From assembly GCF_001083805.1 (NCBI RefSeq), contig NZ_JXSK01000001.1:496001-560000 (forward strand): a DNA stretch of 64,000 nt, read 5' to 3'. Position numbers and translations under genes: made by a program. Shown here in pieces: positions 17,266 through 32,883 of this stretch. How positions within the stretch are numbered: the first letter of the stretch is position 1; every line of letters begins with the position of its first letter. The notes under the pieces are model-generated. The model was not told where the DNA came from. It was given only the letters and a program-made list of their open reading frames with translations, and ran no database searches. Origin of the DNA: Photorhabdus luminescens subsp. luminescens. GTDB taxonomy: Bacteria > Pseudomonadota > Gammaproteobacteria > Enterobacterales > Enterobacteriaceae.

Positions 17266-17301
17266 ATGGAATGTTAATTAATTATCTGAATGAGGTGTAC
17301 T

Positions 17302-17562
17302 ATGGTATCGCGTACAATGACAGTAGATACCGGCGAAGAATTACGTGGTTTTGTAGAAAGCCTAGTTAAATCAGGTTATTACAAAACTAATAGTGAAGTC
17401 GTTCGGGAGGGATTACGGTTATTACAGGAAAAACAAGCTGAGTCTAAACTTGAAGCACTTCGTCAGCTAATTGATGAAGGTGATAACAGTGGAGAAGTTG
17501 TAGCGTGGGATCTCAATACTTTCCTTACACGTATGAAAAATAAAACACCCAATGTCCAGTAA
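17302..17562 (+). CDS. parD: ParD-like antitoxin (ribbon-helix-helix)
   Basis: An 86-residue antitoxin from ATG 17302, preferred because GAGGTG lies ahead of it and the family starts MVSRTMTVD; an upstream ATG at 17290 would lie on the ribosome binding site. The N-terminal RHH domain (TMTVDTGEELRGFVESLVKSG, YKTNSEVVREGLRLL) binds DNA, and the C-terminal part wraps the toxin. It overlaps the start of a ParE gene by 11 bp, but that toxin is truncated. The antitoxin itself looks intact and may still repress or cross-neutralise. Confidence 0.87.
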   Translation: MVSRTMTVDTGEELRGFVESLVKSGYYKTNSEVVREGLRLLQEKQAESKLEALRQLIDEGDNSGEVVAWDLNTFLTRMKNKTPNVQ

Positions 17563-17692
17563 AACATTTTTTCTAAAGCCTAAAGCTGAACAGGATTTAG
17601 AGGCTATTTTTGAATACAGTTATCAAGAATTTGGCCTGGAAAGAGCGTATCAAGATATTGAATTACGCAGCCATATTGTAACAATATTAATA
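17552..17692 (+). pseudogene. Truncated ParE-like toxin
   Basis: The first ~40 codons (SSKTFFLKPKAEQDLEAIF, EYSYQEFGLERAYQ) match the N-terminus of ParE/RelE-superfamily gyrase toxins. ParE proteins are ~95-105 residues with a conserved C-terminal half; here the homology ends near 17675 and the frame continues to 17896 through AT-rich DNA and the add-derived repeat. The cut falls within ~20 bp of the start of that repeat (17697), so the event that brought in the repeat probably destroyed parE. An active toxin is not expected. Confidence 0.8.
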
Positions 17693-17696
17693 GTAT

Positions 17697-18254
17697 ATAT
17701 ATCCTTTAAACTGAGTCATAAGAAAAATTTATTTTTTGTACATTCAGTCTGGCATCCAATTATATTGTATTTTATATTCCAAATATATAACTACATGGCA
17801 CTCAGCATAATCAGGAATGGAATTTCCATTCCTGAACTATTTGTATTTAACGATTTGCTGCTTTCACTTGTAATGCTTGTTTTTCTGCATCACTGATAAA
17901 AGCGGTTTCCAGCCCATTTATCTGAGCCTGGCGAATTTGAGCAATAGATAAACCGGCGGCAGGGGCGGCAACTTCATATTCATGGCGGATGTCGATACCT
18001 TCAACGGCTGGATCATCTGTATTAATGGAAGCAAGAATACCTTTTTCCAAGAATCGTTTGAGTGGATGGTCCAATAAAGAATTAACGGTGCTGGTTTGAA
18101 GGTTTGAGGTTAAACAAGATTCAATACCAATACGGTTTTCAACCAAATAATCCATCAATAAGGGATCGGTTATGGCTTTTACTCCATGACCAATACGAGT
18201 AGCGCCTAATTCCCTAATTGCTTGCCAAATACTTTCAGCGCCGGCATGGATGGT
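17697..18254. repeat. Direct repeat copy 1: duplicated add 3' end (left boundary of island)
   Basis: This segment matches 31745-32301 in the same orientation, at roughly 95% identity by eye over the coding part. It includes ~150 bp downstream of the add stop and ~400 bp of add coding sequence. Differences include a ~13-bp insertion near 17795 and a 12-bp deletion near 18238. The two copies bracket the 19.5-31.4 kb gene cluster. Confidence 0.9.
17847..18254 (-). pseudogene. 3' fragment of adenosine deaminase gene
   Basis: It encodes roughly the last 135 residues of Add (…[17 protein letters not shown] to the stop at 17847-17849), with RIGHG and ASINTDDP retained. The N-terminal ~195 residues, including the metal-binding HLDG motif, are absent. 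Relative to the intact copy, four residues including the catalytic Glu of HAGE are deleted in frame. It is clearly non-functional, but apart from that deletion it reads through without a stop, so the duplication is not very old or was acquired from a functional relative. Confidence 0.92.
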
Positions 18255-19495: not shown

Positions 19496-20634
19496 GTGAA
19501 AAAGTCAAATATTTTAATTGTTGGTTGTGGTTATGCTGCAGATTTCTATGTGTCAAATCTTAATGACTATGATTGCCTAAATATTGTTGGCTGTGTCGAT
19601 AGAGATAGCAATCGACTTGAAGCTTTCTCAAACTATCATGGTTTCGATGCTTACTCTTCGGTAAGCGATGTGTTAGAAAATGTAAATGTTGACATATTGC
19701 TAAACTTGACGAATCCAGAGGAGCACTACAATGTGTCATTGGAAGCTGTGGCTAATGGAATTTCAGTATACAGTGAAAAGCCATTTACTATGGACATTAC
19801 AGAATCAAGAAAATTGGTAGAAGTTGCCAAAAATAATAACTGTATTATAACAAGTGCACCCTCCTTATTATTAAATCCGCCTATCATCAAGGTAATAGAG
19901 ATATTGAGCTCTGGCGAAATTGGAGAAATACGTTTAATTAAGAGTGCGATTCATGAGGGACCAGTTCATAAAATGAACTTTGGTAGTTGGATTAGTCCTT
20001 CAGGCGCACCTTGGCCGGCAAAGAATGAATTCGAAGTTGGTTGTGGCTTTGAACATGGTTCTTATGTGATTGATTTAATTTTGGCTTTAATGGGGACGCC
20101 AGATAGCATGAGCTATAGCTCTGCCTTAATCTACCCGGATAAAGAAGTTACAGATTCACCTGCCCCTGATTGGATTGATCTCACTTTGGAATATTGTGAT
20201 AGTAGAAGAGCAAAAATTGAGCTTAGCATTGTTGAAAGTGAGGATCATAGTTTTCGGATAATTGGAGATGAAGGTGAAATAATAGTTGAAGATTTATGGA
20301 TGGCGAATTCTCCAATAATTTTAAGAAAGAATAAAGAAGATAAAATCGATCGCCCCCAGAACACTTTTCGCTAAGAAAAACGCTTCACCCCTACAAGATA
20401 GACAGAAGATATGATGATACCCACTTTATTGACCAAGCTACTGGAGTCTTAGATTTAGCCATTTCACTAAATTACAAATTAGAACCTTTACTTGATATTA
20501 AACGGTCTTTGGAGTCCATCAATATCATAGAAACAATAATGACGAATAGTAAATTTAGGCCGCTTACTAAAATGAATGAGACGTTATTAGATATAGAATT
20601 ATTTTCATCAAGGATAAGGAGGTTCTTCTTATGA
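19496..20634 (+). pseudogene. Gfo/Idh/MocA dehydrogenase, likely inositol dehydrogenase; apparent frameshift
   Basis: The start is GTG 19496 behind GGAGGTGAG. Frame one covers 292 codons to a stop at 20372-20374, with the Rossmann motif ILIVGCGYAADFY and the EKPFT signature. Adding one C to the CCCCC run at 20353-20357 restores a 379-codon gene: …DRPPEHFSLRKTLHPYK and the family C-terminus DQATGVLDLAISL, ending in TGA 20632-20634 that overlaps the next ATG as ATGA. That overlap argues the long form is ancestral. Expected role, by context: NAD-dependent oxidation of myo-inositol (or a related cyclitol) to an inosose, the substrate of the aminotransferase encoded two genes downstream. Substrate is inference; a sugar or scyllo-inosamine dehydrogenase is possible. 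It is either a real inactivating mutation or a sequencing error. Confidence 0.8.
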
Positions 20635-22586
20635 TAACTCTAGGGATTAGCGGTAGTTTCGAAACATTTGAAACACCTGTTATTGGGGATATACCAAATT
20701 GGTTTGGTCATGATGCCTCAGCTGCGATCATCAAAGATGGTAAGATTGTTGCTGCTGTGGAGCAAGAGCGTCTGGATAGAATTAAACACTCTAATCAGTT
20801 TCCTATTGATGCCATTGTTGAGTGCTTAAAAATCGCACAAGTTGAAATAACTGATGTTGACAAAATTGCATTTTATTTTGAAGAGTTAAATACAGACACG
20901 GGACTTGGCTTACAATATATTGAAAGAAAAAATCTTGAGGTTGAAACTTCTAGAAGTTTAATTAACAAGATACTTGTGCGTAAATTTGGTGAAGAAGTTA
21001 GAAATATCCCAATTGAATATGTGCGTCATCATGACACCCATGCTATCATGGCGGCTGAAAATTCTGGCTTCGATAGTTCATTAGTTATTGTAATAGATGG
21101 AAATGGGGAAGATGAGTCTACATCAATCTATTCATATATCGATGGGGTTGTTAGAAGTATATATAGATATCCAGTTTCTTCATCACTAGGAAGATATTAC
21201 CTCGATTGTATATCTTTACTAGGATATGAACGATTTGATGAGTATAAGGTAATGGGATTGGCTTCTTATGGCAAACAAAATCAATTTGATGAGCTTTTCG
21301 AAGAACTTATAAATTTTGAAGAAGGTGGAAAGGTTTCATTTAATCATACAAATATACCTGCTTACTTTTTAGATAGAGGTATTTTGCCAAGGAGAGAAAA
21401 TGAATACATTTCAGAAAATCATCAAAACTTTGCGCATTCCATACAAAAGTACCTAGAAAAGATGGCATTCCATATAATATCTTTCTGGTCACAGAAGCTA
21501 AGTCAGAGAAACCTATGTCTCAGTGGTGGAGTAGCTCTAAACTGTACATTGAATGGAAAGCTCGCCTTCAGCGAATTGTTTGATAACATTTTTGTTCATC
21601 CTGCCTCACACGATGGTGGAAGCGCTGTCGGTGCTGCCATGTGCGCAATGTATCCTAACGCTAGGATTAATGGGAATAAGATCGAGAATGTTTACTTAGG
21701 ACCTGATATAAATAGTAAATATGCGCTTGAAATAATAGATAGAAACCAAGATATTATAGAAATTATTAATGCTGAAGATGAGTTTCAATTTCTTGCGAAT
21801 GAAATTAGTAATGGCAAGATAATAGGATGGGCTAGAGGTAGAATGGAATATGGTCCAAGAGCTCTTGGTAGTCGTAGTATTCTAGCTGATCCCAGACCTA
21901 TTGAATCAAAATATAGAACTAATCAAATTATTAAGCAACGAGAATCCTATCGTCCATTTGCACCCATGGTGTTGGTGGATGAAATTTCAGATTGGTTCCT
22001 AGTTCCAGATTGCAAAGTGAACTTGGAATATATGGTATTTAATCTCCCAGTTGTTAAGAAAAACCAACAAAAACTTGCAGCTATAACACATATAGACAAC
22101 ACAGCGAGAGTTCAAGTTGTTGGAGAATATAATAAGGATATCTACCAGCTAATAAAGAATTTTAAAGAAATTACAGGGGTTCCTGTTTTGTTGAATACCT
22201 CATTCAATGTAAATGCGGAGCCAATTGTATGTGACGCGTATGATGCTATACAGTGCTTTCTACTTACAGACTTGGACTATCTGGTTGTCGGCGATTTCAT
22301 TATTAAGAAAAGAATTCGTGGTGATAATCTATACGAGTTATTGCGGCCAATAAAAAAAGAGTTTGTAACTACTATCAAAAAAGTTACAAGTGAATCTTGT
22401 TCATACTACATCAATACAGCAACATACAGCGAGTGGGTTACAGAGACAGAGTTGTCCTGTTTTGATGCCGCCGATGGTATTAAAACAATTAGTCAATTTC
22501 TACTGGATGGACGTATTCGAGAAGGCGATATCATAAGTGCCTACAAGCGGTTGTTAAGCAAGAGGCTATTAAATTTGGCGTTATAG
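20631..22586 (+). CDS. NodU/TobZ-type O-carbamoyltransferase with C-terminal extension
   Basis: A 651-residue enzyme of the NodU/CmcH/TobZ family, which makes carbamoyladenylate from carbamoyl phosphate and ATP and transfers the carbamoyl group to a hydroxyl. The N-terminal ASKHA/Kae1-like domain shows GHDASAAI, RHHDTHA, DGNGEDEST, VMGLASYG, LSGGVALNCTLNGK and SHDGGSAVGAA. The C-terminal YrdC-like domain shows GPRALGSRSILADPR, ESYRPFAPM and LLNTSFN. Beyond about residue 565 there is an extra ~80-residue tail (YYINTATYSEWVTETELSCF … LDGRIREGDI) that could be a small winged-helix-like domain. It overlaps the dehydrogenase gene by ATGA and precedes the aminotransferase by 8 bp. The acceptor is unknown but likely the glycosylated cyclitol. 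Confidence 0.9.
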   Translation: MITLGISGSFETFETPVIGDIPNWFGHDASAAIIKDGKIVAAVEQERLDRIKHSNQFPIDAIVECLKIAQVEITDVDKIAFYFEELNTDTGLGLQYIERKNLEVETSRSLINKILVRKFGEEVRNIPIEYVRHHDTHAIMAAENSGFDSSLVIVIDGNGEDESTSIYSYIDGVVRSIYRYPVSSSLGRYYLDCISLLGYERFDEYKVMGLASYGKQNQFDELFEELINFEEGGKVSFNHTNIPAYFLDRGILPRRENEYISENHQNFAHSIQKYLEKMAFHIISFWSQKLSQRNLCLSGGVALNCTLNGKLAFSELFDNIFVHPASHDGGSAVGAAMCAMYPNARINGNKIENVYLGPDINSKYALEIIDRNQDIIEIINAEDEFQFLANEISNGKIIGWARGRMEYGPRALGSRSILADPRPIESKYRTNQIIKQRESYRPFAPMVLVDEISDWFLVPDCKVNLEYMVFNLPVVKKNQQKLAAITHIDNTARVQVVGEYNKDIYQLIKNFKEITGVPVLLNTSFNVNAEPIVCDAYDAIQCFLLTDLDYLVVGDFIIKKRIRGDNLYELLRPIKKEFVTTIKKVTSESCSYYINTATYSEWVTETELSCFDAADGIKTISQFLLDGRIREGDIISAYKRLLSKRLLNLAL

Positions 22587-22594
22587 GAGGATGC

Positions 22595-23824
22595 ATGAAA
22601 CCTTTTGAGATGAATTGGCCGGTGTGTGATGTTGATCTGCTAACTGATGTAGAAGGAGCACTTAGATCTACGCGTTGGACATTGTCAGGCCAGTCTGAGA
22701 CATTGCCACACTTTAGTACTCTTTTCTCAAGAAAATGGGCAGACTATATAGGTACTAAACACGCCATTCCATGCACTTCTGGAACAGCGGCGTTGTCCAT
22801 CGCACTTGAAGCGATAGGTATCTTACCTGGAGATGAAGTTATAGTACCAGGTATGACTTGGGTTGCAGTTGCTCAAGTTGTGTATAATCTAGGTGCCATT
22901 CCTGTTTTGACTGATATTGATCCTTTAACCGGACAAATATCAGAGAAGGCAATACGAGAGAATATTACCCAAAACACCAAAGCCATTATTTTGGTACATG
23001 CTTATTGCGGCATGGTAGATGTGAAAAAAATTGGTGTTATTGCAAGTAATTATGGTTTAAAAGTTATTGAAGATTGTTCACAAAGTCATGGGGCAACGTG
23101 GAAGTCAAAGAAGGCTGGTTCTTTTTTTGATATATCTGTATTTTCTACTCAGCAATCAAAACTGCTTACTAGTGGGGAAGGTGGAGTTATTGCTACGAGC
23201 TCGGATGTTTACTATTCCATAATACAAAATTTGATGATGGATGGAAGAGCTAGAACTGATAGTGTAAATCCAAGAAATCTTATGGTTATTTCCGGTAATG
23301 GAGAAGTGCAAGGAAGGAACTACAACATTACTGAGATGCAGTGTGCTATTTTGTTAAATGGCCTTAAAAGATTAGATTGCGAGAACGAAAAGCGACGTTT
23401 AAACGCCATGGTTCTTGATGACTGCCTTAGAGAAAATAAAATATGTAATATCCTTGACGCAGACGAAAATATTGATCAGAGAGTATATTGGCGTTGTGTC
23501 GTGGACTTCAACTGTGAAGTTAAAGATGAACAAGTACAAGAAATATCGAACTATTTCTCAGAGAAATATCGAATACCTTTTGAAAGGCTTGATAAACCTT
23601 TAAATAACAATCCACTCTACCAACCAAGTCGAGTTGATAGAAACAAATATTATAGCCATTTTGAAAGGCTGAATAGTATAAATTATAGTCTTCCAGGAGC
23701 TGAAAATTTTTACAATCGAACAATGGCGTTCCCTCATCAAGTGTTACTTCAGCCGAAGGATTGGATAGTTGATTTTGCAAAAGAAATAAATAAGGTTGCA
23801 CATAAATGTCAAATTGGTTTGTGA
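22595..23824 (+). CDS. DegT/DnrJ/StrS aminotransferase, likely inosose aminotransferase
   Basis: A 409-residue PLP-dependent aminotransferase. PLP-binding blocks are TSGTAALSIALEAIG, PGMTWVAVAQVVYNLGAIPV and EDCSQSHGATW; the Schiff-base lysine is K189 in STQQSKLLTSGEGG. The QQ-x-K-x-LTSGEGG form of the lysine loop is, to my knowledge, characteristic of the StsC/BtrR subfamily that aminates scyllo-inosose or 2-deoxy-scyllo-inosose in aminoglycoside pathways, rather than of the common sugar aminotransferases. The neighbouring inositol-phosphate synthase and dehydrogenase genes fit that substrate. GGAGG sits before ATG 22595, and the 3' end overlaps the next gene by 19 bp. Alternative: amination of a keto-sugar nucleotide. 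Confidence 0.88.
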   Translation: MKPFEMNWPVCDVDLLTDVEGALRSTRWTLSGQSETLPHFSTLFSRKWADYIGTKHAIPCTSGTAALSIALEAIGILPGDEVIVPGMTWVAVAQVVYNLGAIPVLTDIDPLTGQISEKAIRENITQNTKAIILVHAYCGMVDVKKIGVIASNYGLKVIEDCSQSHGATWKSKKAGSFFDISVFSTQQSKLLTSGEGGVIATSSDVYYSIIQNLMMDGRARTDSVNPRNLMVISGNGEVQGRNYNITEMQCAILLNGLKRLDCENEKRRLNAMVLDDCLRENKICNILDADENIDQRVYWRCVVDFNCEVKDEQVQEISNYFSEKYRIPFERLDKPLNNNPLYQPSRVDRNKYYSHFERLNSINYSLPGAENFYNRTMAFPHQVLLQPKDWIVDFAKEINKVAHKCQIGL

Positions 23825-24747
23825 TTCCTCATCATGCAAAGAGCAAGCGAGGTAATGATTATTTGATTGAAACCTTATTTTCAATACATGCTCAGTCAAC
23901 CCCAGATTGGTGTGTTGTAATAGTGGATGATAATTCAAGTTTCTATGATCGATTGAATGTCAGAATAAAAGACTATTTTCCGAGCGATATAATTGATAAT
24001 AGATTTCATTTTATAGTTAACGAGAAGAGTGGTGGGGTGTCGTCAGCAAGAAATATTGGGGTTAAGTATGCTCACAAACACGGTGCTAATATCATTTTTT
24101 TTCAGGACGATGATGATATTGCTCATCCATATCGTATAGAGAAAACGTTATGTGCTGTAGAACAGATTAATCAACCAGACTTAATTATTAGTACAACCTT
24201 TACCGGAATTGATGGAAATAGTAATTCGGTTTCTCTCGAAAACTTTAGGAGTGATATGTTCGACGTCGCTGTTCAGCATAGTCGGTATACTCCAGAAGGA
24301 AGCAATAAATACCTAGATATGATTAGGTGCTGTGGGTACATATTTCCGACGTCAGGAACGGCAGTCAATGTTGACTTGGCGCTTAGATGTCCATTTCCAG
24401 ACTTTTTAGTTTCGGAAGATCATGTCACTTGGATGAATATGGTTGCAGATGGAGCATTTATTAAAATACTAGAAGACATTCCATTTAAATATAGATTCAA
24501 AGGAGATGCTGTACATCGTCCTGATACCTTTTTAGCGGAGAAGTATAAGAACGATATTGAAGGCTTTATAATCTCAATGAATTTATATATTGAAAAGTTT
24601 GGTGCTTATTTCAATATTAATGAAGTTATAGAGGAATTCCTAAATAGATTAAATAATTGCTTATCTCTGCAAGGAAACTACACCCTATCAGATATGCATA
24701 ATTTTAAATCCTCTTTTCTTGGAATAAAAAGTAAGATTAAGGAATAA
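23806..24747 (+). CDS. Glycosyltransferase, GT-A fold (family 2-like)
   Basis: A 313-residue cytoplasmic glycosyltransferase with the GT-A nucleotide-sugar fold: WFVIPHHAKSK, VVIVDDNSS, SGGVSSARNIGVKYA and an acidic FFQDDDDIAHP metal-binding motif (DxD). A later SEDHVTWMNMVADGA segment resembles the catalytic-base region. No membrane segment is seen. It overlaps the aminotransferase gene and is 7 bp before the next glycosyltransferase, so they are co-translated. Donor and acceptor cannot be read from the sequence; context suggests a sugar transfer onto an aminocyclitol. Confidence 0.85.
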   Translation: MSNWFVIPHHAKSKRGNDYLIETLFSIHAQSTPDWCVVIVDDNSSFYDRLNVRIKDYFPSDIIDNRFHFIVNEKSGGVSSARNIGVKYAHKHGANIIFFQDDDDIAHPYRIEKTLCAVEQINQPDLIISTTFTGIDGNSNSVSLENFRSDMFDVAVQHSRYTPEGSNKYLDMIRCCGYIFPTSGTAVNVDLALRCPFPDFLVSEDHVTWMNMVADGAFIKILEDIPFKYRFKGDAVHRPDTFLAEKYKNDIEGFIISMNLYIEKFGAYFNINEVIEEFLNRLNNCLSLQGNYTLSDMHNFKSSFLGIKSKIKE

Positions 24748-24754
24748 GAAATTT

Positions 24755-25612
24755 ATGACTCTAAGTATAATCATCCCTTCTTATAACAAAAAAGAAAGTC
24801 TAATGTCTTTGCTCTCTTTACTAAACAAGCAAAGTGCGGACTTTAATGAATTCGAAGTAATAGTTGTAGATGATGGTTCTAGCGATGAGACTTGTCTTGC
24901 TGTTACTAAACGAGTTTACAACTATAAACTCAAGTATATATATGTACCCGACGAAGGTTTTCGTGTAGCCCGAGCGAGAAATATTGGAGCTAAAAATGCA
25001 AAAGGGGAGCTACTAGCTTTTGTTGATGCTGACGTACTTTTGCCGAGCTATTTCGTTAAGAGAGTGATCAGGTTCCATAGCTCTAACCCACAATCAGTTT
25101 CGATTGGAAATGTATACGGTCTGTACTCTGAAAATAAGTGGGATCTAAAAGTTGACCTGGATGATATAGATAGCACAATTAAAAGGATGAAAGAATTTGA
25201 TGTTGGCAAAGATATTCGTCAAAGCTCGTACGCGAGATTCAACTATAAATTATGCTCCATGCCTGCACCTTGGGTTTTTTTATGGGGAACAATATTTAGT
25301 GTAGAAAAAGAACTCTTTGAAAAAGTGGGCTGTTTTGATGAACACTTTAAATCATGGGGTGGTGAAGATATTGATCTTGGTTTCCGGCTTCACAAAGCTA
25401 ATTCTGAATTTCATTTATTTGAGGGGATAGAAGGTGTACATCTGTCTCATCCAGAAGATGATGATGTAAACTATAAAACTAACTTAGAAAATAAAAAATA
25501 TATTTCTGAGAAGTATAGTAATGAAATGACAGATTGGCTTGTAAAAGAAGAGAATATATTTAAACTAAATGATTTAATAATTTCAAAAAACACTAATAAA
25601 AAGGATTCTTAA
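24755..25612 (+). CDS. Glycosyltransferase family 2 with galactosyltransferase-type C-terminal domain
   Basis: A 285-residue GT-A enzyme: LSIIIPSYNKKESL, VIVVDDGSSDET, DEGFRVARARNIGAKNA, and the DxD motif FVDADVLLP. The second half has FDEHFKSWGGEDIDLGFRL, the WGGED signature of the Glyco_transf_7C/chondroitin-polymerase-like domain, followed by HLSHPEDD. It is a soluble enzyme of single-sugar-transfer size. It shares this architecture with the third glycosyltransferase at 29207. It ends 1 bp before the inositol-phosphate synthase gene. Confidence 0.87.
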   Translation: MTLSIIIPSYNKKESLMSLLSLLNKQSADFNEFEVIVVDDGSSDETCLAVTKRVYNYKLKYIYVPDEGFRVARARNIGAKNAKGELLAFVDADVLLPSYFVKRVIRFHSSNPQSVSIGNVYGLYSENKWDLKVDLDDIDSTIKRMKEFDVGKDIRQSSYARFNYKLCSMPAPWVFLWGTIFSVEKELFEKVGCFDEHFKSWGGEDIDLGFRLHKANSEFHLFEGIEGVHLSHPEDDDVNYKTNLENKKYISEKYSNEMTDWLVKEENIFKLNDLIISKNTNKKDS

Positions 25613-25613
25613 T

Positions 25614-26699
25614 ATGATTAACGTTGCTATTGCAGGTATTGGAAATTGCTGTTCGTCTCTTTATCAAGGGATTTATTTTCACTTAGATAGCGATCCAATA
25701 ATTAATGATCTAGGTATTTCAATCAAAGATATAAATGTCAAAGCTGCATATGATGTTGACTGTAGGAAAGTTGGCTTACCAATATCAAAAGCAATTTTTG
25801 CAAAACCCAATTGTGCAAGGGTATTCTGCACCGATTTGCCAGAAGGTCCGATCGTCGAAAAAATTGAAGTTTTTGATGGTGTATCTCTGTATATGAGCAA
25901 TCAACCAGAAGATCGCGGGTTTCGTGTATCGAGTGATCAAAAACCAATTAACTTGGTTTCTAGCCTTAAAGAAAACGAAATAGATATATTGATAAATTAT
26001 TTACCTGTTGGCTCTCAAAAGGCTACCGAGTATCTTGCTGAATGTTGTCTGGAATCTGGTGTTTCGTTGCTTAATTGTATCCCAGTTTTCATAGCGTCTG
26101 ATCCAGAGTGGGATAAAAAGTTCTACGATAAAGGCATCCCTATCATAGGTGATGATATGAAGAGTCATTTAGGTGCGTCAATTTTGTCGCAAGTATACCA
26201 GGAATTAGCACACTCAAGAAATCTAGCTGTTGACTATCACCAGCAAATTAATATTGGAGGAAATACTGATTTTAATAATATGATGGTTCAAGATAGATTA
26301 ACATCAAAAAAAATTTCGAAAGAAAATGTTATTAGAAGTCAAAATGAAATTGCAGGAGTGAATGTCCTTGAGGATTCTATTTTTGCTGGACCATCGACTT
26401 ATATACCTTATTTGAAGGATAACAAAGTTGCGCATATACGTCTGGAGCTTACTGGGTTTGGCGGAAGCAAAGTCGAAATTGATACTAAATTATCGGTGCA
26501 AGATTCTGAGAATTCAGCTGGTGTTGTGATTGATGCTATACGTTATTTGAAGATTGCTAGAAACATGGGACTAAAAGGTGCTTTAAAAGGCCCTTCAGCA
26601 TGGACTCAGAAAACACCCCCTGTGCAATTAAAAATCGAAGAAGCAATTTCTGAGTGTCAAAAGCTGGCAGCCTTTGAAGTACCGAAACACATGCTTTAA
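25614..26699 (+). CDS. ino1: myo-Inositol-1-phosphate synthase
   Basis: A 361-residue enzyme of the short prokaryotic MIPS type, best known from actinobacteria, which cyclises D-glucose-6-phosphate to 1L-myo-inositol-1-phosphate using bound NAD. Landmarks are the nucleotide-binding VAIAGIGNCCSSLYQG, the catalytic-lysine segment IIGDDMKSHLGASILSQ, INIGGNTDFNNM, AHIRLELTGFGGS and the late NSAGVVIDAIRYLKIARNMG. This enzyme is rare in Enterobacterales, and here it stands between glycosyltransferase and carbamoyltransferase genes, so it should supply cyclitol precursor for the cluster product. The ATG at 25614 follows the previous stop by 1 bp. Foreign origin is likely from rarity and AT-rich composition. 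Confidence 0.92.
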   Translation: MINVAIAGIGNCCSSLYQGIYFHLDSDPIINDLGISIKDINVKAAYDVDCRKVGLPISKAIFAKPNCARVFCTDLPEGPIVEKIEVFDGVSLYMSNQPEDRGFRVSSDQKPINLVSSLKENEIDILINYLPVGSQKATEYLAECCLESGVSLLNCIPVFIASDPEWDKKFYDKGIPIIGDDMKSHLGASILSQVYQELAHSRNLAVDYHQQINIGGNTDFNNMMVQDRLTSKKISKENVIRSQNEIAGVNVLEDSIFAGPSTYIPYLKDNKVAHIRLELTGFGGSKVEIDTKLSVQDSENSAGVVIDAIRYLKIARNMGLKGALKGPSAWTQKTPPVQLKIEEAISECQKLAAFEVPKHML

Positions 26700-26712
26700 G
26701 TTTGAGGGAACT

Positions 26713-28403
26713 ATGAACAAGCCAATTTATGTTTTAGGTTCTGGGTTATCACATGACGGATCAGCATGCTTAATGAAGAATGGTAAAATCATCGTTGGCA
26801 TTGAAAAGAAAGAATTACGAAGATTAAGCATGATGGATTTAATGATAATGATGCTATAAGGTATTGCTTAGATGCAGCAGGAATCACTTTTAAGGATGTA
26901 GATTTATTTGTTGAGAAATATACGGTAAATGAAAAACACAAGCCTGATGATCTAATCAAGCGTCGAGGTAGAATTATACCCGATTACCTCCCCGTTGTTA
27001 GAATCGGCCACCACATTGCGCATGCATACAGTGCAGTTGGTACGTCTCCATTTTCAGAGTCTGCCGTGATTGTATGTGATGGAATGGGAGGAAGTATTGA
27101 TAGTTGCCTAGATCATGACATAAACCTAGTTCCCAGCGATATAGCAAAATTATCTAGATCGGACTATATCGACTATTTTGAAAAGGAGAGCTACTATAAG
27201 TTCTTTAATAATAATATAATACCAGTATTTAAAGATTACTCAAGATTTCATCTTAATGACCTAAATAGATATAAAATTGCTCCTTATGATATCGAACATT
27301 CTATAGGTGGGCTATATGGAGGTGCTAGTAAGTTTGTATTCGGTAACGACTTCAACGAAGGAAAATTAATGGGTTTAGCACCATATGGTAAGAGTGGAAG
27401 ATTCTCAGGCGAACTATTTCTGATGGAGGATACTAGGGTCAAAATAAACTATGACCTAATTGAGAACTTGGGCCTAAAAGATACAAATATCAAAGATGAC
27501 TTCCAGTATTGTGCTGATTTATCTAAGTGGGTGCAAGAACAAACTGAGGAAGCTTTATTTTACCTGCTTAATGAATACCACAAGATGTACTCGTCAGATA
27601 ACTTATGTTATGCGGGTGGATTAGCATTAAACGCAGTAGCTAATGGTAAAATAACACATAATACGCCATTCAAGAATGTTTATATTCAGCCGGCTGCTGG
27701 TGATAATGGCCTCGCAATCGGAGCATGTTATTACGGCTGGATGAAAGTGCTTAATAAAGAAAAAGTCCCATTTAATGGAAACCCATATTTTGGCATAAAG
27801 TACGATACCTTTGAGTCTAGTTTACGTAAATGCTTGGATGACAACTATGTAATAACTAATCCAGATAATTTGGAAGAAGTTGTCGCAAAGCATATTAGTG
27901 AGGGAAAGGTAGTCGGGTGTTTTAGAGATGGATCTGAATTTGGGCCTCGGGCTTTGGGGAACAGGAGTATATTAGCTGATCCAAGAAGAAAAGAGATGCT
28001 TGATTATATCAACATTGAAATCAAGAATCGTGAAGAATTTCGTCCATTTGCGCCTTCAATTTTAAAGGATAGGTATTCAGACTTTTTTAGGTTTGGCAAT
28101 GAAGATAGCGATTATATGGTCAAGGTTTCACAAGTAATACCGGAGAAATCAGAGCAAATTGGAGCGGTAGTACATGTCGATGGAACTGCTCGTGTCCAAA
28201 CAGTGACTAGAGAATTAAACAGAAATTACTATAATCTTATTAATGAGTTTTACAAACTTACGGGTGTGCCAATTTTGCTGAATACCTCCTTTAATGGCAA
28301 GGACACTCCCATTGTAGAAACTCCCGAAGATGCGATTAATTTCTATAGGGAAAGCAAGTTGGATTTTTTAATTATAAATGACTATCTCATTCATAGGAAA
28401 TAG
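26713..28403 (+). pseudogene. Second NodU/TobZ-type carbamoyltransferase; apparent frameshift near N-terminus
   Basis: From ATG 26713 (GAGGGAAC upstream) the frame reads MNKPIYVLGSGLSHDGSACL and stops at 26857-26859. One extra A in the AAAA run at 26804-26807 restores EKERITKIKHDGFNDNDAIR and joins it to the long downstream frame (ending 28403), giving 563 codons. The rebuilt protein has SHDGSA, GHHIAHAYSA, VCDGMGGS, AGGLALNAVANGK, AAGDNGLAIGA, FGPRALGNRSILADPRR, EFRPFAPS and LLNTSFNGKDTPI. It lacks the long C-terminal tail of the first carbamoyltransferase. If the deletion is real the enzyme is probably lost, because the SHDGSA start would be separated; if not, the cluster adds two carbamoyl groups or acts on two acceptors. 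Confidence 0.82.
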
Positions 28404-28409
28404 AGAAGT

Positions 28410-29195
28410 ATGTTAAAGAATGAAAGGTTTGTACATGCCAAGCAAGTTATTGCAGGTGCAGGAGATATTGCACTCGAAATGTTCAACAACCTAGCTTTTA
28501 TATGTGAACATAAAAAAGAAGGAGATGTGCTTACCAGCTCTGACCTGATTGTAGATGAATATATAAAAAGCTCCATTTCAGATATATTTCCTAGTGATAC
28601 GATTATTTCTGAAGAGTCTTCCTTTCACCGCTTTACAGATACAAGCGAATATACCTGGCTAATTGATCCAATTGATGGAACTCATAGCTTTTCTACAGGT
28701 GTGTTTGGATGGTGTATATCTATTGCTGCCTTTAGGAAAGGCAGCATATTATTTGGTTTAATCTACGATCCAATTCGTAAAGAATGTTTTAGTGCTTACC
28801 ATAGTCAAGGTGCTTTCTTAAATTCCACAAGATTATCTGCAAGCGCCCAGCCGCTCGTAGAGCAGGAACATAGTCCTATGCCTTACTTAGCGTTTGGTAC
28901 GTCTTATCGTGATGACAAGAGGAAAATTTCAAAAGCATTAACAAGTTTATTTGAACTTGGCTATTTGCCCTATAGAAATGGTAGTGCAGCTCTCTGTATG
29001 TCATACGTTGCTGCAAACCGCTTGCTTGCCTTCTTTGAGCTAAATTTGTATCAATGGGATGTCGCAGCGGGATATATTATATTAAAAGAGGCAGGCTTTC
29101 AGGTACATTACTCCTTTAGTGATATAAGCAGTGCTCAAGCATTGATATGCGGTAGGCATGACATTGTAAAAATGATTAAAAGTGAGATATTTTAG
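28410..29195 (+). CDS. Inositol monophosphatase family phosphatase
   Basis: A 261-residue Mg2+-dependent phosphatase of the IMPase/CysQ family. The metal-binding residues are in place: E68-E69-S70, WLIDPIDGTHSF (D86, D89) and QWDVAAGYIILKEAG with the third Asp. It would dephosphorylate myo-inositol-1-phosphate from the ino1 product to free inositol, or a phosphorylated intermediate. It begins 6 bp after the carbamoyltransferase gene and is followed after 11 bp by a glycosyltransferase. A CysQ-type role is less likely in this context. Confidence 0.88.
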   Translation: MLKNERFVHAKQVIAGAGDIALEMFNNLAFICEHKKEGDVLTSSDLIVDEYIKSSISDIFPSDTIISEESSFHRFTDTSEYTWLIDPIDGTHSFSTGVFGWCISIAAFRKGSILFGLIYDPIRKECFSAYHSQGAFLNSTRLSASAQPLVEQEHSPMPYLAFGTSYRDDKRKISKALTSLFELGYLPYRNGSAALCMSYVAANRLLAFFELNLYQWDVAAGYIILKEAGFQVHYSFSDISSAQALICGRHDIVKMIKSEIF

Positions 29196-29206
29196 GCTGG
29201 CTTATT

Positions 29207-30070
29207 ATGATTATCAGTATTATCATTCCTTGTTATAATAATACCATTCAATTGCTATCGACTATATCATCTTTAGATAATCAAATACTATCAGATAAAG
29301 TTGAACTGGAGGTGGTTATAGTTGATGACGGTTCAGATGAGTCTATAAATGTAAGCAATATTAATTGCACGCATGAAATAATTGTCGTTTCTCAAAAGGA
29401 TGATGGATTTCGAGTTGCATTAGCTAGAAACCGAGGGGCAAGGATTGCCAGTGGTGAAATTTTATTGTTCGTTGATTGTGGAATATATCTAGAAAAAAAT
29501 GCCGTTTCGAGTATTATCGAACCTTCTTTATATGATAAATGCTGTGTCTCTTTAGGAAGTATTTACGGAATCACTAACTGCTCTAACAACAAGAAAATCA
29601 TTCTTAGAGATATTGAAAATTATGGAGTCGAAGGTGCATTAAAATTATATATCTCAACTTCCACTTTTCCTGATCCTAGAATCTATCATCTTTCATATCA
29701 TGGTATGGATATGCGGAATTTACGTGCTCCATGGGTATATTGCTGGGGTGGGGTAATAGCTATACGCAAGTCTTTATTTGACTCTATATCTGGATTTGAT
29801 GAGTCGTTCAGATCTTGGGGAGGAGAGGATATCGAGTTGGGTATTAGACTTATGAAAGAGGGGGCAATATTTAGTTTCGTTTCTAAATCAGCTTCGATAC
29901 ATATTCCTCAACCAGAAGATGTTGTCAGTAAAAAGAAGTCTAACTTTAATGCCTTTGAATATATACACTCTAAGCATTTACTAGATGAAACATACTTGTT
30001 ATTACAGCATGAGTATTGGGGGATTGAAGAGATACTTCGTCAAAGATCAGTTTTGAGGCGGCACCAATGA
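29207..30070 (+). CDS. Glycosyltransferase family 2 with galactosyltransferase-type C-terminal domain, altered DxD
   Basis: A 287-residue enzyme, same architecture as the one at 24755: ISIIIPCYNNTIQLL, VVIVDDGSDES, DDGFRVALARNRGARIA, and FDESFRSWGGEDIELGIRL with HIPQPED at the end. Where the paralogue has FVDADVLLP, this one has FVDCGIYLE, so the second Asp of the metal-binding DxD is replaced by Gly. It may be metal-independent, use another acidic residue, or have reduced activity. Its TGA overlaps the MATE gene's ATG (ATGA). Confidence 0.85.
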   Translation: MIISIIIPCYNNTIQLLSTISSLDNQILSDKVELEVVIVDDGSDESINVSNINCTHEIIVVSQKDDGFRVALARNRGARIASGEILLFVDCGIYLEKNAVSSIIEPSLYDKCCVSLGSIYGITNCSNNKKIILRDIENYGVEGALKLYISTSTFPDPRIYHLSYHGMDMRNLRAPWVYCWGGVIAIRKSLFDSISGFDESFRSWGGEDIELGIRLMKEGAIFSFVSKSASIHIPQPEDVVSKKKSNFNAFEYIHSKHLLDETYLLLQHEYWGIEEILRQRSVLRRHQ

Positions 30071-31410
30071 CGTCTCGCGTAGCCACTGATATTTATCGAA
30101 TAACTAAGCTTGCGTTGCCGATTACGGCTCAGTCGATATTGTTTACTTCGATGTCAATTATCGACACGATAATGATTGGATATATAGGCACAGAAGAGCT
30201 AGCTGGAATGGGATTGGCAACTAGCATTATGTTAGTTTTTTTGAGTGTAGTCTATTCTTTTTCAAATTCAGTATCAGTTATAGTTGCTCAAAATAAGCAC
30301 TTTCCAAACACTCTAAAATTGATTGTGACTAATGGGCTTGTACTTAGTTTTACTTTATCATTTTTTATTTTTTCTATTGTTAAGCTGTTTAATAAAGATG
30401 TTATTTTGTTTTTTTGGGGAGAAGGAGATTATACCTCTAAAGCAATAGACTACCTTGATGTCATTTCATATACAATTTTGACGTCCGCCATCATTCAAGT
30501 TTATATAGGTCTTCTCAATGCGCTCGGTAACACATCGTTAACGTTTTTGATATCTGCAAGTGGTGTTGTTGCTAATATCTTTTTCAGTTATTTTTTGGTT
30601 TTTGGCATAGCTGATGTGGATGGATACGGAGTGATTGGAGCTGCATTGGGTTCAGTTCTTTCAAAGTTAATAGAAATATTCCTAATCATATTCTTTCTAT
30701 TAAAAAAGTACAATGGATTGTACCTTGACTTTTACAAGTTTAATTATAAGTGCAAATCCTCTAGAGAGTTGTTGAATATAGGAGGTGCGCAAGCTATAAA
30801 TGCTTTACTGTGGGCGGCGAGTATGAGCCTATACACTTTAATAATTGCTTTTCAAGGCAAAGATTTAGTGGCTTCAGCAGCGGTGATCTCCTCAATTATT
30901 AACCTAGCCCATATTTCTTATTGGGGGATTGCAATCGCAGCAGGGATAGTGATAAGTGAAGCGTTAGGCAAAAAGGAGTATGAAAAAGCCACGGCTATAT
31001 CACGTTTGTGTATAGTGTTAGGTTTGGCATTCGCTTTACCACTCACAGCCCTGCTCTATCTGCTAAATGGGTTTATTTTATCCTTTTATCCTGAGTTATC
31101 ACAAAGGTCTATTGACTTTATTCATGACGCTTATGTTATTGTGTTAGTTACTATTATTATCAGGTCACTTTCAACGATAAATATCGTTGGCGCTCTCAGA
31201 AGTGGGGGAGATAATCGCTTTATCATCATTATAGATATGGTAGCAGCATGGTTCTTTGGTATACCTCTTTGCTACATAATACTTTTCTATACAGATTTAC
31301 CTTTGTTTTTGGCTTTCTCTGCACCAATGGTGGAAGACATGGTAAAAGCGGTCCTTTCAACCTTTCGAGTGATTGGAGAAAAATGGCAGAGAACTATTAG
31401 TGTGTCTTAG
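30067..31410 (+). CDS. MATE-family multidrug/natural-product exporter
   Basis: A 447-residue protein with about 12 hydrophobic helices and the MATE opening KLALPITAQSILFTSMSIIDTIMIGYIG. The repeat-like second half starts near ELLNIGGAQAINALLWAASM. MATE proteins export organic cations by H+ or Na+ antiport, suitable for a cationic aminocyclitol. It is the last gene of the cluster and overlaps the preceding glycosyltransferase by ATGA, so it is co-expressed and probably provides export and self-protection. Confidence 0.88.
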   Translation: MTSRVATDIYRITKLALPITAQSILFTSMSIIDTIMIGYIGTEELAGMGLATSIMLVFLSVVYSFSNSVSVIVAQNKHFPNTLKLIVTNGLVLSFTLSFFIFSIVKLFNKDVILFFWGEGDYTSKAIDYLDVISYTILTSAIIQVYIGLLNALGNTSLTFLISASGVVANIFFSYFLVFGIADVDGYGVIGAALGSVLSKLIEIFLIIFFLLKKYNGLYLDFYKFNYKCKSSRELLNIGGAQAINALLWAASMSLYTLIIAFQGKDLVASAAVISSIINLAHISYWGIAIAAGIVISEALGKKEYEKATAISRLCIVLGLAFALPLTALLYLLNGFILSFYPELSQRSIDFIHDAYVIVLVTIIIRSLSTINIVGALRSGGDNRFIIIIDMVAAWFFGIPLCYIILFYTDLPLFLAFSAPMVEDMVKAVLSTFRVIGEKWQRTISVS

Positions 31411-31744: not shown

Positions 31745-32301
31745 ATATATCCTTTAAATTGAGTAATGAGAAAGAGCTTATCGTTTTTATATTCAGATTA
31801 GCATCCAATTCTATTGTATTTTATATTCCAAATATATAACCATAATCAGGAATGGAATTTCCATTCCTGAACTATTTGTATTTAACGATTTGCTACTTTC
31901 AGCCGTAATGCTTGTTTTTCTGCATCACTGATAAAAGCGGTTTCCAGCCCATTTATCTGAGCCTGGCGAATTTGGGCAATAGATAAACCGGCGGCAGGTG
32001 CGGCAATTTCATATTCATGGCGGATGTCGATGCCTTCAACTGCTGGATCATCTGTATTAATGGAAGCAAGAATACCTTTTTCCAGAAATCTTTTTAGTGG
32101 ATGGTCCAATAAAGAATTAATGGTGCTGGTTTGAAGGTTTGAGGTTAAACAGGCTTCAATACCAATACGGTTTTCAACCAAATAATCCATCAATAAGGGA
32201 TCGGTTATGGCTTTTACTCCATGACCAATACGAGTAGCGCCTAATTCCCTAATTGCTTGCCAAATACTTTCTGCGCCAGCGGCTTCGCCGGCATGGATGG
32301 T
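31745..32301. repeat. Direct repeat copy 2: 3' end of add (right boundary of island)
   Basis: Partner of 17697-18254, same orientation, roughly 95% identical by eye over the coding part. This copy belongs to the intact add gene. Similarity starts at ATATATCCTTTAAA in both copies and stops abruptly within the HAGE region of add. Confidence 0.9.
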
Positions 32302-32883
32302 TATATGCCAACCAGCATCACGGGCTTTATTAAAATGGGATTGAAACAGATGACCGGGAAAACCTAATTCGTCACCCGCCAGATCCAGTGCAGTAATATG
32401 TTGTTGGTGAGTTAACAAGCTAGCTAATTCCTGAGTACAGGCTTGCTCACCGAAAGTTCTGCTCAAAATGCCGATAAGACGAATGTCGATATCGTTATTT
32501 TGACGGGCAGAATGGATACCATCAATAATCGCCTCAACAACCCCTTCAATTGGCAATTTGTGGTTCATCGCCATGTAATAAGGGGAAAAACGTAATTCAG
32601 CATAGTCGAGCCCAGTATTGATGGCATCTTCAACATTCTCAATAGCAACACGACGACAAGCGTCCAAATCAGCGAGTACCGCCACTCCCCAATCAAGTTT
32701 TTGCAAAAAGCTTACCAAGCTCGGTTCATTTTCAATAATTTGTACGTGAGGGCGGAGTGATTCCAGATCATTTGCTGGAAGCTGAATATTATGCTGGTTG
32801 GCAAGATCTAAGATAGTCTCCGGCCGAATATTTCCGTCGAGATGGCGGTGTAAATCTGTCAGTGGGAGTTTTGTGTCAATCAT
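31882..32883 (-). CDS. add: Adenosine deaminase
   Basis: A 333-residue purine-salvage enzyme that converts adenosine and deoxyadenosine to inosine derivatives. The zinc-binding [14 protein letters not shown], the catalytic [14 protein letters not shown] and LASINTDDP blocks are all intact. It is followed downstream by ~140 bp that are also duplicated at the other end of the island. Its neighbours ydgA and manA are as in E. coli. The ATG at 32881-32883 has AAAGGACC upstream. Confidence 0.97.

What the first reader, a model, noticed from the sequence alone, without database searches (positions are those of the whole stretch)
19496..31410. Putative aminocyclitol glycoside biosynthetic island, carbamoylated and exported
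Ten tightly packed plus-strand genes (overlaps or gaps of a few bases, several ATGA couplings) encode a complete logic not explained by core metabolism: inositol-1-phosphate synthase, inositol-monophosphatase family enzyme, Gfo/Idh/MocA dehydrogenase, DegT/StrS aminotransferase, three GT-A glycosyltransferases, two O-carbamoyltransferases, a MATE exporter. From established pathways (streptomycin-type inosose amination, TobZ/NodU carbamoylation) I infer glucose-6-P → myo-inositol → scyllo-inosose → scyllo-inosamine-type aminocyclitol → glycosylated and carbamoylated pseudo-oligosaccharide → export. I know of no aminocyclitol product from Photorhabdus. No PKS/NRPS and no NDP-sugar genes are present, so sugars would come from common nucleotide sugars.
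Basis: partly seen in the sequence, partly recalled or inferred. Interest (0 to 1): 0.9.

Follow-up and report, generated by a model that had tools for sequence, protein, structure and literature searches.

The report
Decaying sugar-antibiotic-like island in Photorhabdus
An insect-killing bacterium carries a ten-gene island, shared with a few other nematode symbionts, that looks built to turn inositol into an exported, carbamoyl-decorated, aminoglycoside-like sugar compound, although two of its genes have broken reading frames in this genome.

Summary
The ten plus-strand genes are real (19496-31410) and the family assignments hold. The intact set is in P. asymbiotica DSM 15149, a damaged one in Xenorhabdus stockiae, remnants in two more Photorhabdus. 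Synonymous divergence from P. asymbiotica (0.13-0.29) is well below that of two flanking genes (0.57, 0.62): recent transfer; dN/dS is 0.06-0.29. The aminotransferase groups with 2-deoxy-scyllo-inosose aminotransferases, not nucleotide-sugar ones; the synthase is nearer to M. tuberculosis INO1 than to Ari2; the exporter is a MATE; no Wzx/Wzy. Best reading: a cluster for an exported, carbamoylated glycoside of an inositol-derived amine, probably failing in this strain. The dehydrogenase's substrate is unproven, and all 12 Photorhabdus genomes searched have a true inositol dehydrogenase elsewhere. DOI-synthase genes, another aminocyclitol type, occur in 4 of those 12. No product is known. New variant of a known kind.

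The parts
17806..18245 (-). Truncated copy of the 3' part of add (adenosine deaminase, name by eye); left direct repeat flanking the island
   Evidence: blastn 95.9% over 440 bases to 31841-32280
19496..20374 (+). Gfo/Idh/MocA dehydrogenase, frame broken near residue 290; rest readable in another frame to 20634
   Evidence: PF01408 E 5e-21; three-frame view; 379-aa homologue in P. asymbiotica L006 3878-5017
20631..22586 (+). O-carbamoyltransferase 1 (651 aa), GdmN/NovN-like
   Evidence: PF02543+PF16861; GdmN 457, decarbamoylnovobiocin carbamoyltransferase 428, TobZ 217 bits; 38-43% to rhizobial plasmid carbamoyltransferases, one annotated nolO
22595..23824 (+). DegT/StrS aminotransferase, inosose-aminotransferase-like
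   Evidence: 5w70/2c7t/5w71 DOI aminotransferases 227-235 bits against 146 for the next; tree
23806..24747 (+). Glycosyltransferase 1 (GT2 family, FQDDDD)
   Evidence: PF00535; 31% to a Streptomyces sp. BB1-1-1 protein next to a dehydrogenase homologue
24755..25612 (+). Glycosyltransferase 2 (GT2 family with DAD and WGGED motifs)
   Evidence: PF00535, PF02709; chondroitin synthase 91 bits; motifs
25614..26699 (+). Actinobacterial-type inositol-1-phosphate synthase
   Evidence: PF01658, TIGR03450 299 bits of a 638 cut-off; 1gr0 271 bits, Ari2 6k96 165 bits
26713..28403 (+). O-carbamoyltransferase 2, frame broken near the N-terminus; first start codon of the long frame is internal (27066)
   Evidence: 567-aa homologue L006 11089-12792
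28410..29195 (+). Inositol monophosphatase family phosphatase
   Evidence: PF00459 E 4e-44; WLIDPIDGT and WDVAAG
29207..30070 (+). Glycosyltransferase 3, about 35% identical to 2; the usual DxD reads DCG
30067..31410 (+). MATE exporter
   Evidence: PF01554; TIGR00797 177.8 bits over cut-off 147.4
31846..31870 (.). Terminator-like hairpin, 11 pairs, between the convergent operon and add
   Evidence: pattern scan, 11 such sites found against 7.0 +/- 2.7 in shuffles: a pattern match only
31882..32883 (-). Full-length add (right repeat 31841-32280); island border

Best explanation
A horizontally exchanged biosynthetic island for a secreted, carbamoylated glycoside of an inositol-derived aminocyclitol. 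Inferred route: glucose-6-phosphate to inositol-1-phosphate (synthase), to myo-inositol (phosphatase), to an inosose (island Gfo/Idh enzyme or the resident IolG), to an inosamine (DegT/StrS), then addition of up to three sugars from common nucleotide sugars (three GT2 enzymes), one or two O-carbamoylations, and export by the MATE protein. Shown: gene content, enzyme families and motifs, inosose-type grouping of the aminotransferase, conserved order, purifying selection and transfer. Inferred: every substrate, the order of steps, the product and its use against competitors or the insect. In this genome two of the ten genes are frame-broken, so the path is probably lost or being lost; P. asymbiotica DSM 15149 has all ten frames open.
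For: Families and motifs. Aminotransferase: DOI aminotransferases 227-235 bits over nearly the whole length, next 146; in a group of 8 of 20 tree rows at 100/98 with them. Of 25 plasmid DegT hits listed (1016 records matched) I opened 5: one lies in a cluster with a DOI synthase (Sodalis), one two genes from an inosamine-phosphate amidinotransferase (Streptomyces NBC_00853), one in a Streptomyces cluster with a carbamoyltransferase and an aminoglycoside-phosphotransferase-family protein; the other two, haloarchaeal, show no cyclitol genes. The BB1-1-1 cluster also has a homologue of the island's dehydrogenase (36%) next to one of its GT1 (31%). Synthase nearer to M. tuberculosis INO1 than to Ari2, and the only one in this genome. 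Ten genes in the same order in P. asymbiotica. dN/dS 0.06-0.29.
Against: Frame breaks in 2 of 10 genes here; damage also in X. stockiae. The dehydrogenase is not assignable to an inositol enzyme by model score, and an equally close relative (Komagataeibacter, 37%) has no cyclitol neighbours. NCBIfam's best model for the aminotransferase is PseC, a nucleotide-sugar enzyme, at 170 of a 423.5 cut-off; the Sodalis one also scores best there (179), so that library does not separate them. The aminotransferase group also holds a row (G190, L067) from a cluster without visible cyclitol genes, and two haloarchaeal rows just outside share the Q of the lysine motif. No resistance, amidino or deacetylase gene among the ten. 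No product known.
Confidence: 0.62

Rival explanations
1. The island makes an inositol glycoside whose amine is not on the cyclitol: the Gfo/Idh and DegT enzymes act as a pair on a nucleotide sugar or an attached sugar (as 3-dehydrogenase/3-aminotransferase pairs do, recalled), and the inositol is only the acceptor, as in mycothiol (recalled).
For: Best NCBIfam model for the dehydrogenase is UDP-GlcNAc 3-dehydrogenase (56 bits of a 450 cut-off), IolG 41. 12 of 12 genomes have a resident IolG, so the island enzyme need not be one. The synthase hits TIGR03450 mycothiol_INO1, below cut-off.
Against: The aminotransferase groups with inosose, not nucleotide-sugar, enzymes.
Confidence: 0.18
2. A surface polysaccharide or LPS-modifying locus.
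For: Three GT2-family enzymes; GT2 and GT3 score best with the exopolysaccharide model EpsD, below cut-off; MATE and Wzx share a superfamily (recalled).
Against: No Wzx, Wzy or lipid-linked sugar-phosphate transferase among the ten; MATE model over cut-off; aminotransferase grouping; patchy presence, 2 full copies and 2 remnants among 11 genomes viewed.
Confidence: 0.1
3. A cyclopentitol rather than cyclohexitol product: the synthase is a five-membered-cyclitol-phosphate synthase as in aristeromycin.
For: Ari2 (6k96) is the second-best solved relative, 165 bits.
Against: INO1 is clearly better, 271 bits. But a second, different synthase in P. asymbiotica scores in the same order (298 against 197), so bit scores alone do not settle the ring size.
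Confidence: 0.07

Closest known systems
Streptomyces sp. BB1-1-1 plasmid cluster (NZ_CP134205.1, about 326-372 kb); no product named in the record
   Same: Homologues of dehydrogenase (36%) and GT1 (31%) adjacent, DegT (36%), carbamoyltransferase (33-39%), and a GT2 relative at 30% nearby
   Different: Much larger; has acyl carrier, condensation and AMP-binding proteins, an argininosuccinate-synthase-domain protein, a phosphotransferase; no synthase or inositol monophosphatase homologue in the 49.9 kb examined
2-Deoxystreptamine-type clusters (butirosin BtrS; Sodalis praecaptivus pHS1)
   Same: Aminotransferase of the same group
   Different: They start from DOI synthase; this island has inositol-1-phosphate synthase instead
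Streptomycin/bluensomycin-type inositol-derived aminocyclitols (pathway and the carbamoyl group of bluensomycin recalled, no call)
   Same: Inositol route, StrS-family aminotransferase; O-carbamoylated cyclitol in bluensomycin (recalled)
   Different: No amidinotransferase, phosphotransferase or deoxysugar genes among the ten
Carbamoylated tobramycin (TobZ)
   Same: Same carbamoyltransferase family
   Different: Carbamoyltransferase 1 is nearer GdmN and decarbamoylnovobiocin carbamoyltransferase (457, 428 bits) than TobZ (217)

Membership tests
Aminocyclitol/aminoglycoside biosynthetic cluster | Cyclitol-forming synthase in the cluster | tested here: met
   PF01658 at 84 bits over cut-off 27; NxGGNxDF and KLxVxDSxNSAG kept; TIGR03450 299 bits is under its equivalog cut-off 638
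Aminocyclitol/aminoglycoside biosynthetic cluster | Inosose-type aminotransferase | tested here: met
   grouping by sequence, not activity; NCBIfam has no model that separates it
Aminocyclitol/aminoglycoside biosynthetic cluster | Dehydrogenase that forms the inosose | tested here: inconclusive
   Gfo/Idh fold but no specific model reached; IolG elsewhere in genome
Aminocyclitol/aminoglycoside biosynthetic cluster | Glycosyltransferases for a pseudo-oligosaccharide | tested here: met
   three GT2-family proteins; acceptors untested
Aminocyclitol/aminoglycoside biosynthetic cluster | Self-resistance gene (phosphotransferase or rRNA methylase) | tested here: not met
   none among the ten proteins; the exporter might serve; not a strict requirement
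Aminocyclitol/aminoglycoside biosynthetic cluster | An aminocyclitol product | not testable with these tools
   needs chemistry
Streptomycin-type cluster | Amidinotransferase | tested here: not met
   absent among the ten
O-antigen/capsule cluster | Wzx/Wzy and nucleotide-sugar aminotransferase | tested here: not met
Azasugar three-gene cluster | GabT1-type aminotransferase with GutB1-type dehydrogenase and phosphatase | tested here: not met
   aminotransferase is DegT and dehydrogenase Gfo/Idh; cluster definition from passages of PMC8382821, the families of GabT1 and GutB1 recalled

The most novel reading that the evidence does not exclude
Nematode-symbiotic gammaproteobacteria trade a self-contained pathway, starting from inositol-1-phosphate synthase rather than DOI synthase, for a new class of doubly O-carbamoylated inosamine pseudo-oligosaccharides made with GT2-family rather than GT4-family glycosyltransferases; and of the 12 Photorhabdus genomes none carries both this island and a DOI synthase.
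Probability: 0.4. Interest if true: 0.75.

Novelty: new variant of a known kind. Interest (0 to 1): 0.57.

Why it matters
If true, Gram-negative insect pathogens make an aminoglycoside-like compound by an inositol route known to me mainly from actinobacteria, on an island small enough to test. Ten searches of the open-access library (seven of them with the word Photorhabdus) listed no paper that by title or by the passages I saw describes this island; I opened only five of the papers listed, and subscription papers and bioRxiv preprints are mostly not held. The P. asymbiotica copy with all frames open gives a place to look for the compound, and the decay in sister genomes is a natural experiment on its value.

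Tried and rejected
Wider relatives: GT1 matched 0 of 396 Actinomycetota and only the own genome of 369 Gammaproteobacteria; DegT at E 1e-60 matched 0 of 396 and 2 of 369 (own and G190). The Actinomycetota draws had no positive control and show little. The G190 locus (L067) was opened and shows no other island gene and no cyclitol gene by eye. The synthase's 57-64% relatives (28 loci, mostly Saccharibacteria, some actinobacterial or unnamed MAGs) show no other island gene within the fetched flanks at E 1e-8, and 7 such genomes searched had no DegT match; not pursued. GT2 relatives opened in Agrobacterium, Serratia and Streptomyces plasmids lie in other kinds of loci, the Serratia one with a distant MATE (22.6%). 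Azasugar, O-antigen and aristeromycin-type readings were weighed and put lower. Whether the two frame breaks are assembly errors could not be settled; the genome's 100% completeness argues weakly against many errors. The add-yfeH region was viewed in the own genome and 10 of 11 others (not G149); in G151 and G138 the 13-kb stretch did not reach yfeH, so their site was seen only in part, though neither has a synthase match. The listing left out matches under 28% identity.

Full report
What is there. The window is G000 contig 1, 496001-560000; the nearest named genomes are Photorhabdus. The island has GC 33-38%, lies between two genes that I call ydgJ and yfeH and the gene add (names by eye and recall, not scanned), and is bracketed by a 440-base direct repeat of the add 3' end at 95.9% identity.

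Two genes are broken. The dehydrogenase ORF ends at 292 aa and its remainder is readable in another frame; the second carbamoyltransferase has its first roughly 30 residues in a different frame from the rest, and the long frame's first start codon is an internal GTG. In P. asymbiotica DSM 15149 both are open, at 379 and 567 aa. In X. stockiae DSM 17904 the second carbamoyltransferase is split by a stretch with a minus-strand ORF that I take for a transposase by eye (not scanned), the DegT and phosphatase frames are broken, and the dehydrogenase lies beyond the contig start, if present. That contig also has an integrase, two antirestriction proteins, a toprim/primase protein and type VI secretion genes.

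Distribution. A scan of one genome for each of 84,980 species with six exact peptides of the synthase gave 31 loci; in the fetched flanks only P. asymbiotica, X. stockiae and a remnant in P. namnaonensis have other island genes. The synthase was found in 3 of 12 Photorhabdus genomes including the own one, and in 1 of 149 genomes drawn across the family, the own one; GT1 in 1 of 30 of the X. stockiae genus, itself. At the add-yfeH site, viewed in 11 of 12 Photorhabdus genomes (two of them only in part), two have the full set (own, P. asymbiotica), two have remnants (P. namnaonensis: GT1 pieces, GT2, synthase pieces; G156: GT2 alone), and seven show none of the ten. In P. asymbiotica other genes also lie between the island and add, and no add copy was found left of the island.

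Transfer and selection. Against P. asymbiotica, dS is 0.13-0.29 for the ten island genes (in-frame parts only) and 0.57 and 0.62 for ydgJ and yfeH, the only two flanking genes measured; dN/dS is 0.06-0.29, highest for GT3 and the exporter. Against X. stockiae, the six genes measured gave dS 0.38-0.54 and dN/dS 0.06-0.18. I read this as recent exchange between species plus purifying selection for most of the island's history.

The aminotransferase. Its best solved relatives are three DOI aminotransferase chains (227-235 bits); perosamine synthase follows at 146. The lysine motif reads FSTQQSKLLTSGEGG, against FSCQQGKVLTAGEGG (2c7t), FSMQHSKVLTSGEGG (5w70) and FSFFGNKIITTGEGG (3bn1). In a midpoint-rooted tree of 20 rows the own and P. 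asymbiotica proteins fall in a group of 8 (100/98) with both DOI enzymes, the Sodalis protein from a DOI-synthase cluster, two Streptomyces proteins and the G190 protein; 7 of 10 further DegT matches from P. asymbiotica, P. namnaonensis and X. stockiae (those with loci), and the one of L079, lie outside. Of four of those 7 scanned, one passes the ArnB cut-off (700.6 against 631); the other three score best with PseC below cut-off. Against this: NCBIfam's best model for the island's own protein is also PseC (170 of 423.5), as it is for the Sodalis protein (179); the group's inner order is unresolved; G190 comes from a cluster without visible cyclitol genes; and haloarchaeal rows just outside share the motif's Q.

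The synthase, phosphatase and dehydrogenase. The synthase aligns to M. tuberculosis INO1 at 271 bits and to Ari2 at 165 and is the only match in this genome. The phosphatase keeps WxxDPxDGT and WDxAxG (that these are the family's metal motifs is recalled). The dehydrogenase is Gfo/Idh by family, but neither the IolG nor the UDP-GlcNAc 3-dehydrogenase model comes near its cut-off. A true IolG (over cut-off) is in 12 of 12 Photorhabdus genomes, so scyllo-inosose may be supplied by resident catabolism and the island enzyme may do something else.

Decoration and export. Carbamoyltransferase 1 is nearer to GdmN and decarbamoylnovobiocin carbamoyltransferase than to TobZ and 38-43% identical to rhizobial plasmid carbamoyltransferases, one annotated nolO (41.9%) (25 of 326 records listed). 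The two carbamoyltransferases are about 29-36% identical over parts. GT2 and GT3 are about 35% identical; GT3 has DCG where GT2 has DAD, in the own, P. asymbiotica and X. stockiae proteins. GT1 has no match at E 0.001 among solved-structure sequences. The exporter passes the MATE cut-off.

Context elsewhere. The most similar gene set found outside is in Streptomyces sp. BB1-1-1: dehydrogenase and GT1 homologues side by side, DegT, carbamoyltransferase. For such annotated neighbours I searched only plasmid records, so closer chromosomal clusters may exist.

What is in print. Of the four papers that hold both Photorhabdus and aminocyclitol I saw passages of three (PMC12383660, PMC8382821, PMC8749412) and only the listing of PMC6804068; the passages do not describe this island. 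PMC9491552 (passages and section 23) lists antiSMASH class Amglyccycl five times in 4 of 15 Photorhabdus genomes, none in P. asymbiotica ATCC 43949 or P. namnaonensis. Of PMC12637814 (saskemycin) I saw passages only. A Sodalis DOI synthase matches 4 of 12 genomes at 65-66%; the other 8, this one and P. asymbiotica included, have only a weak match (32-35%, which I take by recall to be dehydroquinate synthase). So the genus has another aminocyclitol-type gene set, in genomes other than those with this island. That these are the Amglyccycl clusters of the paper is a guess.

Verdict.

Noticed in passing
L079 (P. asymbiotica G150 contig 4, about 739-748 kb): A second, different cluster: another inositol-1-phosphate synthase (38-39% to the island's), a SurE-like protein, carbamoyltransferase, S-adenosylmethionine-synthetase-like protein, DegT protein (26%), kinase-like and NUDIX-like proteins (names by eye except synthase, carbamoyltransferase and DegT).
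   Followed up: partly
G149, G151, G157, G158; L098; Sodalis L039: DOI-synthase genes in 4 of 12 Photorhabdus genomes, 65-66% to that of Sodalis praecaptivus plasmid pHS1; one neighbourhood (L098) fetched, no island homologue in it.
   Followed up: partly
29207-30070: GT3 has DCG in place of DxD, kept in three species, next to a paralogue with DAD: possibly altered donor use or a partner subunit.
   Followed up: no
17290-17896: Small overlapping gene pair that looks by eye like a ParD/ParE toxin-antitoxin with the second gene degraded, just left of the add copy.
   Followed up: no
G149 contig 202, 3854-4504 (L065): A second, partial add copy (residues 117-333) in another Photorhabdus genome, and a 46-residue add piece beside the remnant in P. 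namnaonensis: the add 3' end is duplicated repeatedly in the genus.
   Followed up: no
L008-L035: Inositol-1-phosphate synthases of Saccharibacteria and some other MAGs are the closest found outside (57-64% over most of their length), nearer than the best plasmid ones (43-46%); the sample is biased by the exact-peptide search.
   Followed up: partly
L041/L042, NZ_CP134205.1: A large cluster in a bumble-bee Streptomyces sharing four gene types with this island.
   Followed up: partly
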